Positions 1,588-20,190 of a stretch of DNA of 42,047 nt are shown in pieces. Position 1 is the first letter of the stretch. Each line of letters starts with the position of its first letter. Both the position numbers and the translations under genes were made by a program. The stretch comes from a virus. The stretch spans positions 1 to 42,047 of IMG/VR virus record IMGVR_UViG_3300040806_000461; one strand, written 5' to 3'. Under the pieces are notes generated by a model. It did not search any database. It was not told the origin of the DNA and saw only the letters and a program-made list of their open reading frames with translations.

Positions 1588-2214
1588 GTGAACATTGATT
1601 ATATTTTTCCGCATCCAATCGCGGAGGTGCAACTAGATATCGATAATGACAAACTATTACAAACAGTAGAAACCACTATTAGAGATTACTCAAACAATCC
1701 TTGGGATTGTGAAGTATTTTCAACTTACACTCATAGAGAATTAAATGACGATATTATGAGTGTCAATATTGAACTATTAGAGCAGGTTCAATATCACGGT
1801 AGAGAATTCATAAAAGAAGTTGGATGGCATACTGATGCGCCTTTGTATGCAGGTGACTTTTGGTTTAATTTTTATGAGAATGTTCATTGGCAGGAATCAC
1901 ATCATCACGGTATACATGACATATGTGCAATATATTACGCCACACCTGATATAGTTGCAACAGAATTTTTAAATCCAAACGACTATACATTTCATGCGAA
2001 GTATCCTAGAACTGGAAACAGTCCTGTTACTCAAAAATATTACAGTTCATTTCCTAAACCAGGAAAACTAATATTATTTCCTGGATATATAATGCATCAG
2101 GTTCCTTATAAGACTAGACAACCTATTACATATAAACAGCGAAGATTGACAGTTGCTTTCAATTTTGATAAAGAAACTGATAGAATTGCCAACATTTGCC
2201 AAAAAAAGACTTGA
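1588..2214 (+). CDS. 2-oxoglutarate/Fe(II)-dependent oxygenase
   Basis: A 208-residue protein of the phage 2OG-Fe(II) oxygenase group (2OG-FeII_Oxy_5 type). The opening IDYIFPHPIAEVQL matches the 'FPTPI' start typical of the family. The metal site is probably in ESHHHGIHD (His105-His107 region) with distal His170 in LILFPGYIMHQVPY. Arg185/186 before LTVAFNF would bind 2-oxoglutarate. Such enzymes hydroxylate proteins, nucleotides or small molecules; the substrate is unknown. I accept the GTG start because it gives the conserved N-terminus and follows directly after the preceding stop, with GAGAGG about 11 bases upstream. One of four such enzymes in the window. Confidence 0.8.
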   Translation: MNIDYIFPHPIAEVQLDIDNDKLLQTVETTIRDYSNNPWDCEVFSTYTHRELNDDIMSVNIELLEQVQYHGREFIKEVGWHTDAPLYAGDFWFNFYENVHWQESHHHGIHDICAIYYATPDIVATEFLNPNDYTFHAKYPRTGNSPVTQKYYSSFPKPGKLILFPGYIMHQVPYKTRQPITYKQRRLTVAFNFDKETDRIANICQKKT

Positions 2215-5809: not shown

Positions 5810-6448
5810 ATGACTGATAATGCTAACCGCGAAGATTTAGAACCAGTAAGATATATGGAACTTGGAAGTAGCGAGGAAGACAAACGATTATACTCAGATT
5901 ACTTCCAAAGGTCCTTCTATTGGATGTTTGGTGCTGGCGCGGATGGAGCATTTGCACATAGAAATTATTTTGTTTCTGACTATGATAATAATTTAAACTA
6001 TATCAAATGCAATCCATATGTTAAAAATATTTGGATAAAGATAGCACAGAAGTTAGACATAAATGTTAAGACCCAAGTTGGTAGATGTTACCTTCTTGGA
6101 CAAACAGCGCAAATGGATGGTCCTTGGCATCAAGACAATATCGAAGATGATGACTGTAGAACAATTGTATATTATCCTGTAAAAGAAGTTCATCGTAGAC
6201 ATAGAGGAACTCAGTTTAGATTTGATGATGGTGCGGAAGAAGAAGCACCTTATCAACAAGATTGGTTCGTTGATTTCAATGCGGACATTTATCACAGAGG
6301 ATTATCAACAACATCTAAAGATGATTTACGAGTTGCGCTAGTATTTCAGTGTTATCACTTATCAAAAGTACAAGACTTTATTTTTCAGAACACTTGTGGT
6401 AATGATGAACGATTAGATGGTTTGATTGGTCCTATTATTCCAAGATGA
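5810..6448 (+). CDS. 2-oxoglutarate/Fe(II)-dependent oxygenase (HxD type)
   Basis: A 212-residue protein. The double-stranded beta-helix residues are clear: His107-x-Asp109 in GPWHQDNIEDD, distal His162 in DFNADIYHRGLS, and Arg174 in DDLRVALVFQ for the 2-oxoglutarate carboxylate. GTQFRFDDGAEEE is the usual strand between them. This matches the prolyl-4-hydroxylase-like group of phage 2OG oxygenases; the substrate is unknown. No Shine-Dalgarno precedes the ATG (the upstream sequence is AAAATTTATT), so translation probably depends on the endolysin gene 12 bases upstream. Its stop overlaps the next start (ATGA, 6445-6448). Confidence 0.8.
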   Translation: MTDNANREDLEPVRYMELGSSEEDKRLYSDYFQRSFYWMFGAGADGAFAHRNYFVSDYDNNLNYIKCNPYVKNIWIKIAQKLDINVKTQVGRCYLLGQTAQMDGPWHQDNIEDDDCRTIVYYPVKEVHRRHRGTQFRFDDGAEEEAPYQQDWFVDFNADIYHRGLSTTSKDDLRVALVFQCYHLSKVQDFIFQNTCGNDERLDGLIGPIIPR

Positions 6449-7143
6449 TTTTTGATAGTAAAAACATTGAAACAAGACATTCATTTAGATTTAAGAGTAT
6501 AGATGTTAAAAATAATCTATCTCTGAAGTATCCACGTTGTCTTATAGACATAACTAAGTTGAACGTGTCGTATTGCGATGAATTGTATAAGTTTCTTTTG
6601 AGTGAAGTATCAACTCTTATGAAACTAGATGGTCACAAAGAAACTACAGGACTTGATGACCAAAGTCTTTCTACAAGATGGGATAGATATAATCTTCTAA
6701 CAAAGTACAAAGACAACAAATTAATTCAAGAACTTGAAAAAAACATCTTGACTTCTTATGAAAAGTATTGTATACTATCTAATACTGAGATTGAACCTAT
6801 AATGGTTCATTGTTGGTATAATGTTTTAGAAGCAGGACAAAGCATAAGTGAACATGTACATGACTATGGAACATATTCATATATCAGTGGTAATCTTTTT
6901 GTTGGTGGTGCTTGCGATACTTCTGTGACAAAATATATAATTATTAATAGAGATGAAGAATTGAATATGAAAAATAATGTTGGAGATATGACCTACTTTC
7001 CTATGTATCTTCCACATCAAACAAATACCTATGATGGAGATATCCCTAGAGTAACCATAGGTATAAACATATATCCCAAAAGATTTTATGAAGACTTTCG
7101 CAAAAACAACCACAACTGGATAGAACATGTTTACACATCTTGA
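6445..7143 (+). CDS. 2-oxoglutarate/Fe(II)-dependent oxygenase, divergent
   Basis: A 232-residue protein. The C-terminal half has the fold signature: HCWYNVLEAGQSISEHVHD (His137/His139), a central strand YSYISGNLFV, GDMTYFPMYLPHQT (His191), and PRVTIGINIYP (Arg202). The N-terminal 110 residues are polar and not recognisable. It is likely a further member of the phage 2OG-Fe(II) group; the metal ligands are less certain than in the neighbour. It starts inside the preceding stop (ATGA) and overlaps the exonuclease gene by 17 bases, so the three are translationally linked. Confidence 0.65.
   Translation: MIFDSKNIETRHSFRFKSIDVKNNLSLKYPRCLIDITKLNVSYCDELYKFLLSEVSTLMKLDGHKETTGLDDQSLSTRWDRYNLLTKYKDNKLIQELEKNILTSYEKYCILSNTEIEPIMVHCWYNVLEAGQSISEHVHDYGTYSYISGNLFVGGACDTSVTKYIIINRDEELNMKNNVGDMTYFPMYLPHQTNTYDGDIPRVTIGINIYPKRFYEDFRKNNHNWIEHVYTS
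6748..6776 (+). promoter_or_regulatory. Possible internal sigma-70-type promoter
   Basis: TTGACT at 6748-6753, a 17-bp spacer, TATACT at 6771-6776, inside the oxygenase coding region. The hexamers and spacing are identical to the promoter at 8804-8832. It could drive the exonuclease gene at 7127 independently, but AT-rich coding sequence can produce such matches by chance. Confidence 0.35.
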
Positions 7144-9375: not shown

Positions 9376-9609
9376 ATGACTACAAATCCAGAACCGATGA
9401 CTCCAAGAAGATTTTCTAATATAGTAGAAGGTATAGTAAGAGAAAAGCAAGTTAATTATATGGATGCAATTCTTATTTATTGTGAGAAACATGAACTTGA
9501 ACCTGAAGACATTCGTAAGTTTGTAAGTAAAACACTTAAAGAAAAAGTAGCATTAAATGCACAAGACTTGCATTATCTTCCTAAGACAACTGCAGAATTG
9601 CCGGTATGA
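9376..9609 (+). CDS. 33: gp33-like late transcription co-activator
   Basis: A 77-residue protein: MTPRRFSNIVEGIVREKQVN, YMDAILIYCEKHELEPEDIR, KFVSKTLKEKVALNAQDLHY. This matches the short gp33-like proteins of marine T4-like phages ('TPKxFSxxIExLVxEKxxxYIDAVLxYCE'). In T4, gp33 bridges RNA polymerase and the sliding clamp to activate late promoters together with gp55. The T4 protein is about 112 residues, so this is a compact form. The late TATAAATA boxes in the window fit its presence. No Shine-Dalgarno is evident 7 bases after the preceding stop. Its TGA overlaps the next ATG. Confidence 0.75.
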   Translation: MTTNPEPMTPRRFSNIVEGIVREKQVNYMDAILIYCEKHELEPEDIRKFVSKTLKEKVALNAQDLHYLPKTTAELPV

Positions 9610-10136
9610 TGACAGAAATTGATTTATGGTCAACTCGACTGTATGAGTTTTACTTTTCGGAGGACCAGATTGACGCATCCAGACTTGAACTTGATGCATA
9701 TAGAAATAAAAATTCTAAGAATAAACAAAGTCCAGCGTTATATTATACCACTTTTAATAATCCGACAATCTTAGATGCTGGCGATGCAACTAGTGAATTA
9801 TTATCTCTTGTAGAGTGGCAGATAACAAAGCACACAAAACAAAAATGGACAATCAGTTCATCTTGGGTGAACTATGTTCCTAAGAATAATGTTCATAGTA
9901 TGCATAGACATGGTGATGATAATATGATGTGCGGCATTTTATATTATGACAATATAGGTGGAACAGATTTTTATGACCCTAGAGTTCAAATATATAATGA
10001 TGTTGCACAAGAGATTAAATCTGAGAAGGGAAAGTGTATATTATTTCCTGGTTGGTTGATGCATGAGATGTATCCTCACAATGAAGAAGTTGAACGTGTT
10101 ACACTACCATTTAACATGAATAGAGTAGTATTGTGA
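9606..10136 (+). CDS. 2-oxoglutarate/Fe(II)-dependent oxygenase
   Basis: A 176-residue protein of the phage 2OG-FeII_Oxy_5 type. SSWVNYVPKNNVHSMHRHGD supplies the first metal ligand(s) (His100/His102 region), CGILYYDNIGGTDFYDPR is the central strand pair, KCILFPGWLMHEMYPH holds distal His153, and EERVTL-like ERVTLPFNMN carries Arg164. This is closest in layout to the enzyme at 1588. It starts in the stop of the gp33-like gene (ATGA overlap, 9606-9609) and its own stop overlaps the gp59 GTG, so it is embedded between two core replication/transcription genes. Confidence 0.8.
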   Translation: MMTEIDLWSTRLYEFYFSEDQIDASRLELDAYRNKNSKNKQSPALYYTTFNNPTILDAGDATSELLSLVEWQITKHTKQKWTISSSWVNYVPKNNVHSMHRHGDDNMMCGILYYDNIGGTDFYDPRVQIYNDVAQEIKSEKGKCILFPGWLMHEMYPHNEEVERVTLPFNMNRVVL

Positions 10137-15765: not shown

Positions 15766-16287
15766 ATGGCAGAAATAGAAGTTGCAGGAGCAAAAATATC
15801 TGGTGGTAAGATGTTACTCATACTACCATTGCTTAGTGCATTGGGTGGTGGTCTATGGGCAGGATTTGAATTCTACAAAGACTACATGAATATGAAAGAG
15901 CAAATACAAGAATATGTTGCACCTGACTTATCAGGTCTACAAGAACAATTATCTGTGCTTGATGCTAATATGATTAAACTACAAGAGAGTGTCACTGAAG
16001 CAAGAGATTACACTAGAGATATAAAGATAGATTTAAAGAGTGATATTGAACGTATCGAACAGATAGTTGACAAGACTGAACAAAGAGTGAAAGATAGCGA
16101 ATACGAGGTTCGCATACAGTTGACAGACCAGACTAAAGAAGTGCGAGAACTCGTAGACCTTGCCGACCAGAGGTTTGATAACAAACGTGATAAAGTCTCT
16201 AGTGATGTAGATAGGCAATTGAATGAACTAGAAGAAAGATTGAAAAAGATGGTACAACGTGCTTTAGATAATCCTTTGGCGAATTAA
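15766..16287 (+). CDS. Membrane-anchored coiled-coil protein
   Basis: 173 residues. One membrane helix near the N-terminus (MLLILPLLSALGGGLWAGFEF, about residues 16-36) is followed by a long charged coiled coil (about 45-165: LQESVTEARDYTRDIKIDLK, DSEYEVRIQLTDQTKEVREL). The shape would fit a spanin-like or envelope-spanning protein, or a virion assembly factor; there is no direct evidence for either. AAGGAGAG lies before the ATG. It is the third gene of the late operon starting at 13535. Its stop shares TTAA with the stop of the convergent gene. Confidence 0.65.
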   Translation: MAEIEVAGAKISGGKMLLILPLLSALGGGLWAGFEFYKDYMNMKEQIQEYVAPDLSGLQEQLSVLDANMIKLQESVTEARDYTRDIKIDLKSDIERIEQIVDKTEQRVKDSEYEVRIQLTDQTKEVRELVDLADQRFDNKRDKVSSDVDRQLNELEERLKKMVQRALDNPLAN

Positions 16288-18149
16288 TATACTAAGTCTT
16301 CCTGCCATGCTTTCTGTTGTTGATTTCTAGGCGAAATATTTGTATTACTGCTTGAGTTCATTGTTGTTGGTGCCGCCACGGTTGTAACAGTATTAATTAC
16401 TGGTTGTTGCGCTGGTGGCACTACTGCACTAGATACGTCTGCAGTTGGTGCCGCTTGAACTACTGGTGCTAGTCCTAAGGATTCTCTCAGTAATGTGATG
16501 TTCTTTGCCGCTTCATCAAACTTAATATCGCCAGATGCAAGACCTTTAATCTTTGTTCCAGATGATATCCATCCTTCCCCAACAGTACCACCATTGATAG
16601 CAGTTTCAATTGCAGGAATAGATTTCAATAAATCCTCTGCCATATCTGCGATATTCAAATCAGAACCATTAAAGTTTAGACCTGAGATTTTACTTAGTGC
16701 GCCAGCAATTCTATCAAGTGCATTAGCACCTTTTTCTAACTTATCTGCTTTATTCGCAATATTCATCATCTCTTCAATAGGACTCTCTTTACCAGACAAG
16801 AAGTTCAGAATACCACTTGCCGCACCTGCGAGAGAAGAAACTAGATTACCACCGGAGAACTTTAGTAGTCCTGCAGAGATAGTACCCATAACAGAAGAGA
16901 ATTCATCTGCTTTTTTCTGGTCGTATCCTTCACTAGTAATAGATAATAAGTTCTTAACATTATCTTTGATGGTTTGTGTCCAATCGTCTGCCGATATAAA
17001 CTTTGCAACTGCCGCCGCCGCTTGCCCGGCAGAGAATGCGGCAAGACCTAATCCAATGCCCGCCATCGCAAGAGCGAATGTTGCCGCTTCACCAATAAAT
17101 GCTTTAGCACCACCTAGAGCATCAGATATAGAAAGAAGAATTATAACATGGTCTTTAATTTTTTGTGACCAATCACCTGCCATCCAGTCTGCTAATGTTA
17201 AAGTAGCACCCGCAACTGCCATACCAATACCGATAGCGGCAAGACCAGCACCAACACCTCCCATTGCAAGAGCAAAGGCACCTGATGCTTTTAACATATC
17301 CCAGTTACCACCAAGTTCATCTTTGATTGATAGTAATGTAACTACATGGTCTTTAATTTTTTGTGACCAGTTGTCTCCACCTGCCCAATCGGAAAAACCT
17401 AATCCTGCACCACCAACAAAGGCACCAGCACCAAACGCGGCAAGACCTAATCCAACACCTGTCATTGCGAGTGTAAATGCAAACCCATCTTTTAGCATTT
17501 CAAGATTGCCACCAAGTTGGTCTTTAATAGAGAGTAGAGTTACAACGTGGTCTACGATTGCTTGAGACCAGTTTCCTCCTCCTGCCCAGTCCGCGAATGC
17601 CATACCACCTCCAGCAACAGCGGCACCAATACCAAATGCTCCAAGAGCAAGACCTATACCACCAAGAACTGCAATAAGCACACCACCTTCAGCAAGAAGT
17701 TTTAATAGACTACCATCTGCTACTTCATCTTTGAGTGAGAGAAGTGTCTTTACTTTTTGTTTTAGTGCTTCTGCATCAAAGTCAAGCAATCCTGAGAATG
17801 TTGCAAGTAATGCGCCAATACCACCAATAAGAGCGGCACCCATAAGCATTCCTTTGCCTGACATACCACTCTTCACAGGTTTAATTGCTTGTTGGTCTGG
17901 TGTTACATTCTGTCCACTAATGTCTGCTTCTCGCTCACGTTCTTTTTGTTGCACTCTCTCAAATGCATTGTCAGGAGCAAGTGCATCTTTAATTGCAATT
18001 AACTCCGCAAGCATTAGAGAAGATGTTGACACCAAATCTTCCATATTAACAGATAAACTATCTAGGAAAACAATCTGTTGCCCGCCCGTAGACTGAACTT
18101 CTATTTTTAGATGTTCAATTGCTTCCGCTAGTGATGCTATATCTGCCAT
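16284..18149 (-). CDS. Candidate tail tape-measure protein with internal repeats
   Basis: 621 residues. Residues about 130-392 are four repeats of about 66 residues, with a degenerate fifth. Each has a [KD]xVxTLLSIKDxLGGN helix, a Gly/Ala-rich hydrophobic segment (LAMTGVGLGLAAFGAGAFVG) and a closing FSDWAGGDNWSQ. The N-terminus is helical (VQQKEREREADI), and the C-terminus is Ala/Pro/Thr-rich and disordered. T4 places gp29, its 590-residue tail-length determinant, in the gp26-gp54 cluster. This gene occupies the equivalent place and size, and I see no other candidate in the window. At about 1.5 A per helical residue it would span about 93 nm. The function is inferred from position, size and repeats. 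Confidence 0.6.
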   Translation of the reverse strand: MADIASLAEAIEHLKIEVQSTGGQQIVFLDSLSVNMEDLVSTSSLMLAELIAIKDALAPDNAFERVQQKEREREADISGQNVTPDQQAIKPVKSGMSGKGMLMGAALIGGIGALLATFSGLLDFDAEALKQKVKTLLSLKDEVADGSLLKLLAEGGVLIAVLGGIGLALGAFGIGAAVAGGGMAFADWAGGGNWSQAIVDHVVTLLSIKDQLGGNLEMLKDGFAFTLAMTGVGLGLAAFGAGAFVGGAGLGFSDWAGGDNWSQKIKDHVVTLLSIKDELGGNWDMLKASGAFALAMGGVGAGLAAIGIGMAVAGATLTLADWMAGDWSQKIKDHVIILLSISDALGGAKAFIGEAATFALAMAGIGLGLAAFSAGQAAAAVAKFISADDWTQTIKDNVKNLLSITSEGYDQKKADEFSSVMGTISAGLLKFSGGNLVSSLAGAASGILNFLSGKESPIEEMMNIANKADKLEKGANALDRIAGALSKISGLNFNGSDLNIADMAEDLLKSIPAIETAINGGTVGEGWISSGTKIKGLASGDIKFDEAAKNITLLRESLGLAPVVQAAPTADVSSAVVPPAQQPVINTVTTVAAPTTMNSSSNTNISPRNQQQKAWQEDLVY

Positions 18150-18161
18150 TTAAGTGTTTCC

Positions 18162-18491
18162 CTATTTCTTCTTGTCTGTGTAAGCATTCGCGCCAAAGTA
18201 AGCGGCAACAATTGCTGAAGTGGCAACGAAGTAAGTCGGAGCAATATCTCCGATAATATTCGCCGCTGTATCATAACCTAACATTGCTGTAATCAAAATC
18301 GCCCCTGGATAGTTGAATATACCCAACAAAGCGAACCATGTCATATATCTCATTGCATCTCTTCTCGCATCTGCATCTTCAAGTTCTTTACGTTTGAACT
18401 CAAGATACATTTTTTGCTCATCTGTGGTTACTGTTCCATCACCATTGGTGTCTGCTGGATGGAAACCTGCTTCTTTAATATCTTCTCCCAT
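18162..18491 (-). CDS. EF-hand protein with two membrane segments
   Basis: 109 residues. A canonical EF-hand loop DTNGDGTVTTDE lies at residues 14-25, with ligands at 14, 16, 18, 20, 22 and 25. It is followed by a charged helix (KRKELEDADARRDAMRYM) and two hydrophobic segments (WFALLGIFNYPGAILITAML and APTYFVATSAIVAAYFGANA). It probably binds Ca2+ and sits in a membrane, or acts as a tail-tip component. It lies between the tape-measure candidate and gp26, 12 bases from the former, in one minus-strand operon. The start follows the frameshift ORF stop by 3 bases, so it depends on the same message. Confidence 0.68.
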   Translation of the reverse strand: MGEDIKEAGFHPADTNGDGTVTTDEQKMYLEFKRKELEDADARRDAMRYMTWFALLGIFNYPGAILITAMLGYDTAANIIGDIAPTYFVATSAIVAAYFGANAYTDKKK

Positions 18492-18494
18492 TTT

Positions 18495-18671
18495 TTATCC
18501 CTTTTGTCGTTCTTTTTCCTCTTCAATGTATTGCATTAGAAGAGTGACGTAAATTTCCCTCTCCCATGGCATCATATTTTCTAACTCTGTTAAAGAGTAT
18601 TTATGATGTTGCATAAGAGCAAAGTTAGTTTTTAATAAACCAAACAAATCTTCATGCGAGAGGACTATGCT
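18495..18671 (-). CDS. -1 frame extension of gp26 (58 codons, no good start codon)
   Basis: Read in the -1 frame after the slippery site, this gives SIVLSHEDLFGLLKTNF, then LMQHHKYSLTELENMMPWER, EIYVTLLMQYIEEEKERQKG and TAA at 18497-18495. There is no ATG or GTG before residue 20; only TTG (18647) and an internal ATG (18614) exist, neither with a proper ribosome-binding site. The short acidic helical module with 'YS.TELE.M.PWEREIY' recalls the C-terminal extensions of tail-assembly chaperones. If translated by frameshifting, the fusion is 234 + 58 = 292 residues. The alternative is a separate 39-residue protein from ATG 18614. Confidence 0.6.
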   Translation of the reverse strand, partial: SIVLSHEDLFGLLKTNFALMQHHKYSLTELENMMPWEREIYVTLLMQYIEEEKERQKG

Positions 18672-19372
18672 AAAAAATTTTGAAGTCCACTTAATTCTCT
18701 TTCACAGTGCGTTCCACAAGCAGAACATTCATACTCTAATTTTCCAGACATTCTTGGCATATCTGCAAAGAATTCTTTAATGAGTTCAAATTGTTGTTGT
18801 GTTAAATTTTCAATAAACTCTTGTAACTCACTTCTTGATGTTGTACTCATGTCAATGAGTTCTCCGTTATATTCAATACTTTCAATACAACTTGCAAGAA
18901 ACTTGAAGTTATCATCAAGACTGTTCAGGTCTTTTAAAACCCCTAAGTCAACTAGAGTTGGATATCTCATATTAACATATAAACTAGATGTTAACTCAAT
19001 AGTCTTAGACTTGATTTTTGTTTCATCAATTTTTAAATGTCTCAAGTCAATTTTTGTTTGGGTAGTTCCTTTACATTCATCACTAGTACATGCCACAGAA
19101 AATTCAGCAATCTCTCCTACTGACTTTTCTCTTAGACGTAAGAAAATGTTTTCAACTTCAAATACAGGAAGTTTAGATATATCAACAGAACCAAACGTAC
19201 AGTTCTGTAAGATTTGAGTGATTCCATTCATAACTGCATCTGGTGTTCCATCTTCTGCAGACATTAATAAAATCTTTTGCTCTTTGACCAAAAATGGTCT
19301 GTATTTAATAGTCTCGCCTGATGATACTAATTTCAAATCATAGGTTGGAGTATCAATTATTGGTAGTGCCAT
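18665..19372 (-). CDS. 26: gp26-like baseplate hub protein (T4_baseplate family)
   Basis: 235 residues (T4 gp26: 208). IDTPTYDLKLVSSGETIKYR, PFLVKEQKILLMSAEDG and VMNGITQILQNCTF are the conserved N-terminal features of the T4 baseplate family. A Cys pair at 95/100 and Cys216/Cys219 (plus Cys223) could bind zinc, as in other members. In T4, gp26 takes part in hub assembly. The start has GAGGAG about 8 bases upstream. Its last codons, CAA AAT TTT TTA GCA TAG, contain a -1 frameshift heptamer. It follows gp54 by 26 bases in the minus-strand operon. Confidence 0.85.
   Translation of the reverse strand: MALPIIDTPTYDLKLVSSGETIKYRPFLVKEQKILLMSAEDGTPDAVMNGITQILQNCTFGSVDISKLPVFEVENIFLRLREKSVGEIAEFSVACTSDECKGTTQTKIDLRHLKIDETKIKSKTIELTSSLYVNMRYPTLVDLGVLKDLNSLDDNFKFLASCIESIEYNGELIDMSTTSRSELQEFIENLTQQQFELIKEFFADMPRMSGKLEYECSACGTHCERELSGLQNFLA
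18671..18677 (-). promoter_or_regulatory. Putative -1 ribosomal frameshift site (T TTT TTA)
   Basis: Minus-strand heptamer in the gp26 reading frame: (AA)T TTT TTA followed by GCA TAG. It fits X XXY YYZ, and U UUU UUA is a proven -1 slippery sequence elsewhere (for example HIV-1 gag-pol). A slip leads straight into the open 58-codon frame. A weak downstream pairing, GCATAG (18670-18665) with TTATGC (18616-18611), could be a stimulator. Confidence 0.6.
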
Positions 19373-19398: not shown

Positions 19399-20190
19399 TT
19401 ATGGTCCTGGTGGATATGATGGTGCTGGTGCTGGTGCTAGTGTTCCTGTTGCAGGATTGTACTTAACAATATCCGATTCCGGTGTTGTTGATGTTACATT
19501 TCCAACTCCCATCAGTGTGCTTGTGTTTGTCCATTTTCTATATTGAAACTGAACTTGAAGTCTAGGTACTTCACCGCTACCAGCGGACATTTGAATTTCC
19601 GCTACACTTTTTGGGTAACATTCTTGTAGTGTACACTGATATCTAGATACGATGATACTATTTTGTAATGTTCCTATATCAGGAAGAACTCCAAAAGTAC
19701 CAAAACGTCCTTCGCGCATATCTAATCCTAGAATGTGTACATTCGTCACATATTCATTATAATAATTTAAATGAGATGAGTCCTCATTAAAAATCATTCC
19801 TTGCCAAATTTCAAAGAAATCTTTAATCTGATAACCAGCATCCATATAGAAAGACATATTAACAGGAGCATAACTACGACCGTAAGGAATTTCTCTCCCT
19901 GGACCATACTGCTTGTTTATCTTACTATCGATATTCAATCCTGGTAGTGCCGTGGATTCACAAAACAAAGATGCTAGATACTGACCGTCTGCCTTAACAA
20001 AGTTGTTTATGAGACCACCAAACGCATCGTTTGCACCTCTACCTCCAGTTCTAAACAGAGACCCAAATGGATCAGGTCTACCATAATTGTTTGCTGATGG
20101 TCCTCTGGGCATGTCAATAATGACAAGATATTTATTTGCTCTTGCGAAATTTCTAATTTTAGCATTCGCTATGAATTCTGTTAATGACAT
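19399..20190 (-). CDS. 54: gp54 baseplate-tail tube initiator
   Basis: 263 residues (T4: 320). MSLTEFIANAKIRNFARANK matches the T4 gp54 start. CESTALPGLNIDSKI, YGRSYAPVNMSFYMDAGYQI and KDFFEIWQGMIFN are the tube-protein fold features shared with gp19 and gp48, and the C-terminal strand (LQVQFQYRKW) closes the domain. A Pro/Ala/Gly tail (APAPAPSYPPGP) is specific to this phage. gp54 sits on gp48 and starts polymerisation of the gp19 tube. TAATG overlap with the preceding gene; gp26 follows 26 bases on. Confidence 0.8.
   Translation of the reverse strand: MSLTEFIANAKIRNFARANKYLVIIDMPRGPSANNYGRPDPFGSLFRTGGRGANDAFGGLINNFVKADGQYLASLFCESTALPGLNIDSKINKQYGPGREIPYGRSYAPVNMSFYMDAGYQIKDFFEIWQGMIFNEDSSHLNYYNEYVTNVHILGLDMREGRFGTFGVLPDIGTLQNSIIVSRYQCTLQECYPKSVAEIQMSAGSGEVPRLQVQFQYRKWTNTSTLMGVGNVTSTTPESDIVKYNPATGTLAPAPAPSYPPGP

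What the first reader, a model, noticed from the sequence alone, without database searches (positions are those of the whole stretch)
18495..18690. Putative programmed -1 ribosomal frameshift at the end of gp26
Seen: the minus-strand gp26 frame ends CAA AAT TTT TTA GCA TAG, which contains the canonical heptamer U UUU UUA three codons before the stop. A -1 slip continues for 58 codons to 18495. That ORF has no ATG/GTG start at its beginning and no ribosome-binding site. Its product contains a compact helical module (YSLTELENMMPWER, then an acidic end). Known: lambda G/GT, P2 E/E' and many tail-chaperone pairs use a -1 slip near the end of the first gene to make a C-terminal extension. I know of no such frameshift described for the T4 gp26 family. 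Inference: gp26 of this phage is a tail-assembly chaperone-like protein made in two forms (235 and 292 residues).
Basis: partly seen in the sequence, partly recalled or inferred. Interest (0 to 1): 0.82.

Follow-up and report, generated by a model that had tools for sequence, protein, structure and literature searches.

The report
Frameshifted tail-assembly chaperone, T4-like marine phage
The sequence carries a real, strongly conserved ribosomal frameshift signal that would let one phage gene make a short and a long form of a tail-assembly chaperone, a trick already known from many phages and, by published accounts, from T4-like phages too.

Summary
On the minus strand gp26 (PF12322, 18665-19372) ends AAT TTT TTA GCA TAG, with the heptamer T TTT TTA in the slipping phase at 18671-18677. 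A -1 slip opens 58 more codons to 18495.

All 79 readable IMG/VR relatives (43 distinct genes) carry T TTT TTN in the same phase within the last four codons, with the homologous extension in the -1 frame. That frame is under purifying selection (pN/pS 0.24). It has no conserved start codon and no ribosome-binding site for a separate protein. Cyanophages, phi-pp2 (KVP40 group), phiM7, pf16, Cr30, ACP17 and others share the arrangement.

[quoted passage not shown] T4 gp51 is itself a gp26 paralogue with this extension fused in frame, and T4 gp26 lacks it. So T4 uses two genes where this phage uses one gene plus a slip: a short/long tail-assembly-chaperone pair, as in lambda G/GT.

Vladimirov et al. 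2022 identified T4-like chaperone genes, and a 2025 paper cites them for poly-T -1 slippery signals there (primary paper not readable here). This is a new member of a known kind. Frameshifting itself is inferred, not measured.

The parts
18665..19372 (-). gp26 (short form, TAC-N), 235 aa, PF12322 T4_baseplate / phrog_150
   Evidence: PF12322 E 1e-57; phrog_150 E 2e-61; good anti-SD pairing upstream of the ATG, -7.2 kcal/mol
18671..18677 (-). slippery heptamer T TTT TTA, zero-frame codons TTT TTA
   Evidence: sequence; TTTTTTN in the same phase in 43/43 distinct relatives
18665..18667 (-). gp26 stop codon TAG, one codon after the slip codons
18495..18671 (-). -1 frame extension, 58 codons plus TAA; gp51-type C-terminal domain of the long form (fusion 292 aa)
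   Evidence: phrog_634 E 3e-27 over the window's 18498-18677; conserved in frame -1 in relatives with pN/pS 0.24
16284..18149 (-). 621-aa protein in the position of the tape measure gene; no family match, role inferred from position and hydrophobic helical repeats
   Evidence: no Pfam hit and no significant PHROG hit; no BLAST similarity to the Cr30 tape measure; order tube - gp26 - extension - long protein
19399..20190 (-). tail tube protein upstream of gp26
   Evidence: PF23849 E 3e-8; phrog_45 E 6e-28

Best explanation
gp26 and its -1 extension are the two halves of one tail-assembly chaperone gene. Most ribosomes finish gp26 and make the 235-residue short form. A minority slip back one base at U UUU UUA, bypass the stop and make a 292-residue long form that carries the gp51-type helical C-terminal domain. 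By analogy with lambda G/GT, the short form would coat the tape measure protein and the extension of the long form would recruit tail tube subunits during tail assembly. The gene structure and its conservation are shown. The slip itself, its frequency and the chaperone action are inferred.
For: All 79 readable loci (43 distinct genes with the window's) keep T TTT TTN in the slipping phase within the last four codons, and the extension in frame -1. The -1 frame is under purifying selection, pN/pS 0.24 in closer pairs against 1.1 and 2.5 when the same bases are read in the other frames. Of 43, 32 have no ATG/GTG and 9 have not even a TTG in the first 18 extension codons, and there is no SD upstream of the commonest candidate start. 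An SD-like stretch 6-9 nt upstream of the heptamer is stronger than amino acids and codon usage explain (-6.17 against -4.39, SD 0.18), as for known -1 stimulators. T4 gp51 and Aeromonas phage 25 gp51 are natural in-frame gp26+extension fusions, so the fused product exists as a protein elsewhere. Gene order tube - gp26 - extension - long protein matches chaperone position. Among solved structures, HK97 tail assembly chaperone 2ob9 has the highest Foldseek probability listed for the window gp26 model (0.44, but E 1.5).
Against: No proteomic or reporter evidence that the fusion is made. The window's own SD-like element is weak (-3.0, no better than its codon null), and the stimulatory-looking hairpin seen after the heptamer in some relatives (7-8 of 8 pairs in 11 of 43) is absent here (4 of 8). 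Fold matches to known chaperones are not significant. The tape measure identity of the 621-aa protein is by position only.
Confidence: 0.93

Rival explanations
1. The extension is a separate small gene ('gp51, baseplate hub assembly catalyst') started at an internal TTG/ATG or by re-initiation at the gp26 stop, as public annotations have it.
For: Annotated that way in S-RS29, MED4-213, phiM7, RL38J1, Cr30 and S-H34. TTG is over-represented at extension codon 11 (18 of 43; TTG is 22% of leucine codons in these genes). In Mendera and a few others the stop overlaps an ATG.
Against: The annotated starts differ between relatives and often fall inside the conserved domain. 32 of 43 distinct relatives have no ATG/GTG and 9 no start of any kind in the first 18 codons. 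No SD upstream of codon 11 (mean +0.25 against background -0.32; gp26 starts -6.15). It does not explain the invariant T TTT TTN or the fused long form in T4 gp51.
Confidence: 0.04
2. The heptamer is a by-product of a conserved Phe-Phe/Phe-Leu C-terminus in AT-rich genes and the -1 ORF is chance.
For: The C-terminal G-L-x-x-F-F/L is conserved as protein; the genes are AT-rich.
Against: The base before TTT is T in 43/43 whatever the residue, and the codon is TTT, never TTC; the -1 frame is homologous across phages at 45-78% identity and under selection.
Confidence: 0.01
3. The arrangement is a decayed fusion: the long form was once one ORF and a frameshift mutation split it, leaving gp26 alone functional.
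For: T4-group phages have the long form as one ORF.
Against: A dead fragment would not keep pN/pS 0.24 and an invariant slip site over lineages only about 35% identical in gp26.
Confidence: 0.01

Closest known systems
T4 gp26 / gp51 tail assembly chaperone pair (Vladimirov, Gautam and Davidson 2022, Virology 566:9-15; paraphrased in PMC10885494)
   Same: Same protein family; short form without and long form with the same C-terminal domain
   Different: T4 encodes the two forms in two genes on opposite strands, with no frameshift; here one gene and a -1 slip
Poly-T -1 slippery sites in 'TAC-N genes of T4-like phages' (as cited in PMC12846349)
   Same: Apparently the same phenomenon in the same gene family
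   Different: The primary paper could not be read; whether this lineage was in its sample is unknown
Lambda G/GT, P2 E/E+E' and other frameshifted tail assembly chaperones (established knowledge)
   Different: Sequence similarity to them was not tested directly; the fold match to HK97 chaperone 2ob9 is not significant
Cyanophage gp51 of Sullivan et al. 2010 (PMC3037559)
   Same: The same extension; that paper noted it lacks the first ~200 residues of T4 gp51
   Different: It was treated there as a shortened separate gene; the missing part is gp26, reached by the slip

Membership tests
[quoted passage not shown]
   T TTT TTA at 18671-18677; TTTTTTN in 43/43 distinct relatives
Frameshifted tail assembly chaperones (lambda G/GT kind) | -1 ORF conserved, coding, without its own start signal | tested here: met
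   pN/pS 0.24, no conserved start, no SD
Frameshifted tail assembly chaperones (lambda G/GT kind) | Located between tail tube and tape measure genes | tested here: inconclusive
   Tail tube gene upstream confirmed; the 621-aa gene downstream has no family match; Cr30 has an annotated tape measure at that place
Frameshifted tail assembly chaperones (lambda G/GT kind) | Chaperone fold shared with known members | tested here: inconclusive
   HK97 chaperone 2ob9 is the most probable PDB hit listed (prob 0.44), but E 1.5
Frameshifted tail assembly chaperones (lambda G/GT kind) | Both forms made and needed for tail assembly | not testable with these tools
   needs proteomics or genetics
T4 gp26/gp51 family (PF12322, phrog_150/634) | N-terminal domain matches PF12322 over the curated cut-off | tested here: met
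   195.8 bits against 24.5
T4 gp26/gp51 family (PF12322, phrog_150/634) | Extension homologous to the C-terminus of T4 gp51 | tested here: met
   Window extension to phrog_634 E 3e-27 and to phrog_150 C-terminus E 7e-7; T4 gp51 to phrog_634 E 8e-24 and to phrog_150 positions 13-280 E 1e-87

The most novel reading that the evidence does not exclude
Across PF12322 phages the short/long chaperone pair is made in three interchangeable ways: a T TTT TTN slip with a conserved SD-like stimulator (this phage's relatives, cyanophages, phi-pp2 and others); an N NTT TTC site, like that of T7 gene 10, in Ackermannviridae and Vibrio phage D492; and two paralogous genes (T4, Aeromonas phage 25, and a tandem pair in Vibrio phage TDDLMA). 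Frameshift and gene duplication have thus replaced each other within one family, and T4 gp51, long described as a hub assembly 'catalyst', is the long form.
Probability: 0.25. Interest if true: 0.5.

Novelty: new member of a known kind. Interest (0 to 1): 0.33.

Why it matters
It corrects a widespread mis-annotation: 'baseplate hub assembly catalyst' in cyanophages and many other T4-like phages is most likely not a separate small gene but the C-terminal part of a frameshifted chaperone. It also explains why cyanophage gp51 seemed to lack ~200 residues (PMC3037559). The same family offers a natural comparison of frameshifting with gene duplication as ways to set a chaperone ratio. The phenomenon itself is not new.

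Tried and rejected
Downstream stimulatory hairpin: 7-8 of 8 pairs in 11 of 43 relatives, but only 4 of 8 in this phage, so not claimed here. Rfam gave nothing at 18400-18900. PDB by sequence gave no relative; fold searches against PDB gave no significant match. BLASTP of the 621-aa protein against the Cr30 tape measure gave nothing. PF12322 in 399 bacterial genomes occurred only in one MAG, itself reached through a phage contig, so there is no information on bacterial injection systems. Stenotrophomonas phage IME-SM1 first looked like a different (+1/-2) frame relation; its relative Mendera has six T where IME-SM1 has five, so a homopolymer error is the likelier cause. The primary paper (Vladimirov 2022) is not held.

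Full report
What is there. On the minus strand gp26 (18665-19372, 235 aa) ends CTT CAA AAT TTT TTA GCA TAG. The heptamer T TTT TTA is at 18671-18677 with zero-frame codons TTT TTA, so it has the phase needed for a tandem -1 slip. After the slip the reading frame runs AGC ... GGA TAA, 58 codons, to 18495, and the fusion would be 292 aa. All numbers in the finding check.

Is it more than chance? A search of IMG/VR with gp26 gave 80 loci, one of them cut before the end. With the window's own copy, and after removing near-identical genes, 43 distinct gp26 genes remain. All 43 have TTTTTT in the slipping phase followed by A, C or T, within the last four codons. In-frame TTTTTT occurs only 16 times in 10,266 codons elsewhere in the same genes. 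The codon before TTT varies (AGT, AAT, GAT, TCT, ACT) but always ends in T, although T is used at only 77% of pyrimidine-ending codons in these genes. That is constraint on the bases, not on the protein.

The -1 frame is coding. The extension follows the heptamer in the -1 frame in every readable locus. Over 39 distinct sequences pN/pS is 0.27, and 0.24 in closer pairs, against 1.1 and 2.5 when the same bases are read in the other frames. Most have no ATG or GTG before the conserved domain (32 of 43), and nine have no start codon of any kind there. Upstream of the commonest candidate start, extension codon 11 (TTG in 18 of 43), there is no anti-SD pairing (mean +0.25 kcal/mol, background -0.32), whereas the gp26 starts average -6.15. 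TTG is somewhat over-represented at that codon, which I cannot explain.

Stimulators. Across the 43 genes there is a strong SD-like stretch 6-9 nt before the heptamer (mean -6.17). Redrawing synonymous codons from each gene's own usage gives -4.39 with SD 0.18 between replicates, so it is selected beyond the conserved Gly-Leu. No start codon follows at a usable distance, so it fits the internal SD known to stimulate -1 slips (dnaX type, from general knowledge). In the window phage itself it is weak (-3.0). A hairpin directly after the site is present in a minority (7-8 of 8 pairs in 11 of 43) and absent here.

What the extension is. It matches phrog_634 'baseplate hub assembly catalyst' (gp51) at E 3e-27 and the C-terminus of phrog_150 at E 7e-7. 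T4 gp51 matches PF12322 (E 8e-55) like gp26 does, and matches phrog_150 over its whole length including the extension. Alignment shows T4 gp51 as a gp26 paralogue with this domain fused in frame, while T4 gp26 ends before it. Aeromonas phage 25 has the same two-gene arrangement, and Vibrio phage TDDLMA has a short and a long PF12322 gene in tandem. By contrast S-RS29, MED4-213, ACG-2014e, S-H34, phi-pp2, phiM7, pf16, Cr30, ACP17, RL38J1, Atu_ph04, XG4 and Mendera have one gene with T TTT TTN and a -1 extension. None of the records opened annotates a frameshift; the extension is a separate gene with varying starts, or is left out.

How it most likely works. By established knowledge of lambda G/GT and relatives, a short and a minor long form of the tail assembly chaperone keep the tape measure soluble and bring in tube subunits. 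The gene lies after the tail tube gene and before a 621-aa protein that fits a tape measure by position only. AlphaFold gives confident models of the T4-type long form and of the window's short form (mean pLDDT 87 and 90). Foldseek finds no significant solved relative; for the window gp26 the most probable PDB match listed is the HK97 tail assembly chaperone 2ob9 (probability 0.44, E 1.5), a hint only.

Novelty. Vladimirov, Gautam and Davidson 2022 is not held. [quoted passage not shown] PRFect (PMC10885494) paraphrases it: some T4-like phages carry one short gene and one long fused gene. PMC12846349 (2025) cites it for poly-T sequences as known -1 signals in T4-like chaperone genes. The frameshift in this family is therefore most likely already reported, and this phage is a new member. 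Sullivan et al. 2010 (PMC3037559) had noticed that cyanophage gp51 lacks ~200 residues, which the frameshift explains.

Variant sites. In Ackermannviridae the extension is also in frame -1, but the end of gp26 is GAR ATT TTC ATY TAA, and in Vibrio phage D492 TCA CTT TTC AAG TAA. In several Ackermannviridae loci the -1 frame has a stop just upstream, so the slip must fall within about ten bases. N NTT TTC resembles the T7 gene 10 site (from general knowledge). I found no report of this, but did not search for it specifically.

Noticed in passing
L094-L111, L086:3280-3470, L093:3220-3410: Ackermannviridae gp26 genes end GAR ATT TTC ATY TAA with the gp51-type extension (phrog_9633/634) in frame -1; no canonical heptamer, but an N NTT TTC site like T7 gene 10. 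In several loci the -1 frame is closed just upstream, so the slip must lie within about ten bases.
   Followed up: partly
L087:3140-3350: Vibrio phage D492 gp26 ends TCA CTT TTC AAG TAA with a gp51-type extension in frame -1, again without a canonical heptamer.
   Followed up: partly
L091:3215-3240 and L129:1496-1510: Stenotrophomonas phage IME-SM1 has five T at the slip site where Mendera has six; this alters the frame relation in the deposited gp26 and is probably a sequencing error.
   Followed up: partly
L126:1314-2653: Vibrio phage TDDLMA carries a short and a long PF12322 gene in tandem on one strand, a possible intermediate between frameshift and T4-style separate genes.
   Followed up: partly
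extension codon 11 in L002-L081; window 18645-18647: TTG is over-represented among leucine codons at this place (18 of 43 distinct genes, usage 22%) without any SD upstream; unexplained.
   Followed up: partly
window 18162-18491: A 109-aa protein with an EF-hand-like loop (weak, below cut-off) and hydrophobic stretches sits between the extension and the presumed tape measure; no family.
   Followed up: no
window 1588-2214, 5810-6448, 6445-7143, 9606-10136: Four ORFs that by eye look like 2-oxoglutarate/Fe(II) oxygenase-type proteins; not tested.
   Followed up: no
L133, L136-L141: A Rhodobacteraceae MAG holds seven PF12322 genes on different contigs, most with the same slip site; it probably contains several binned T4-like phages.
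   Followed up: partly
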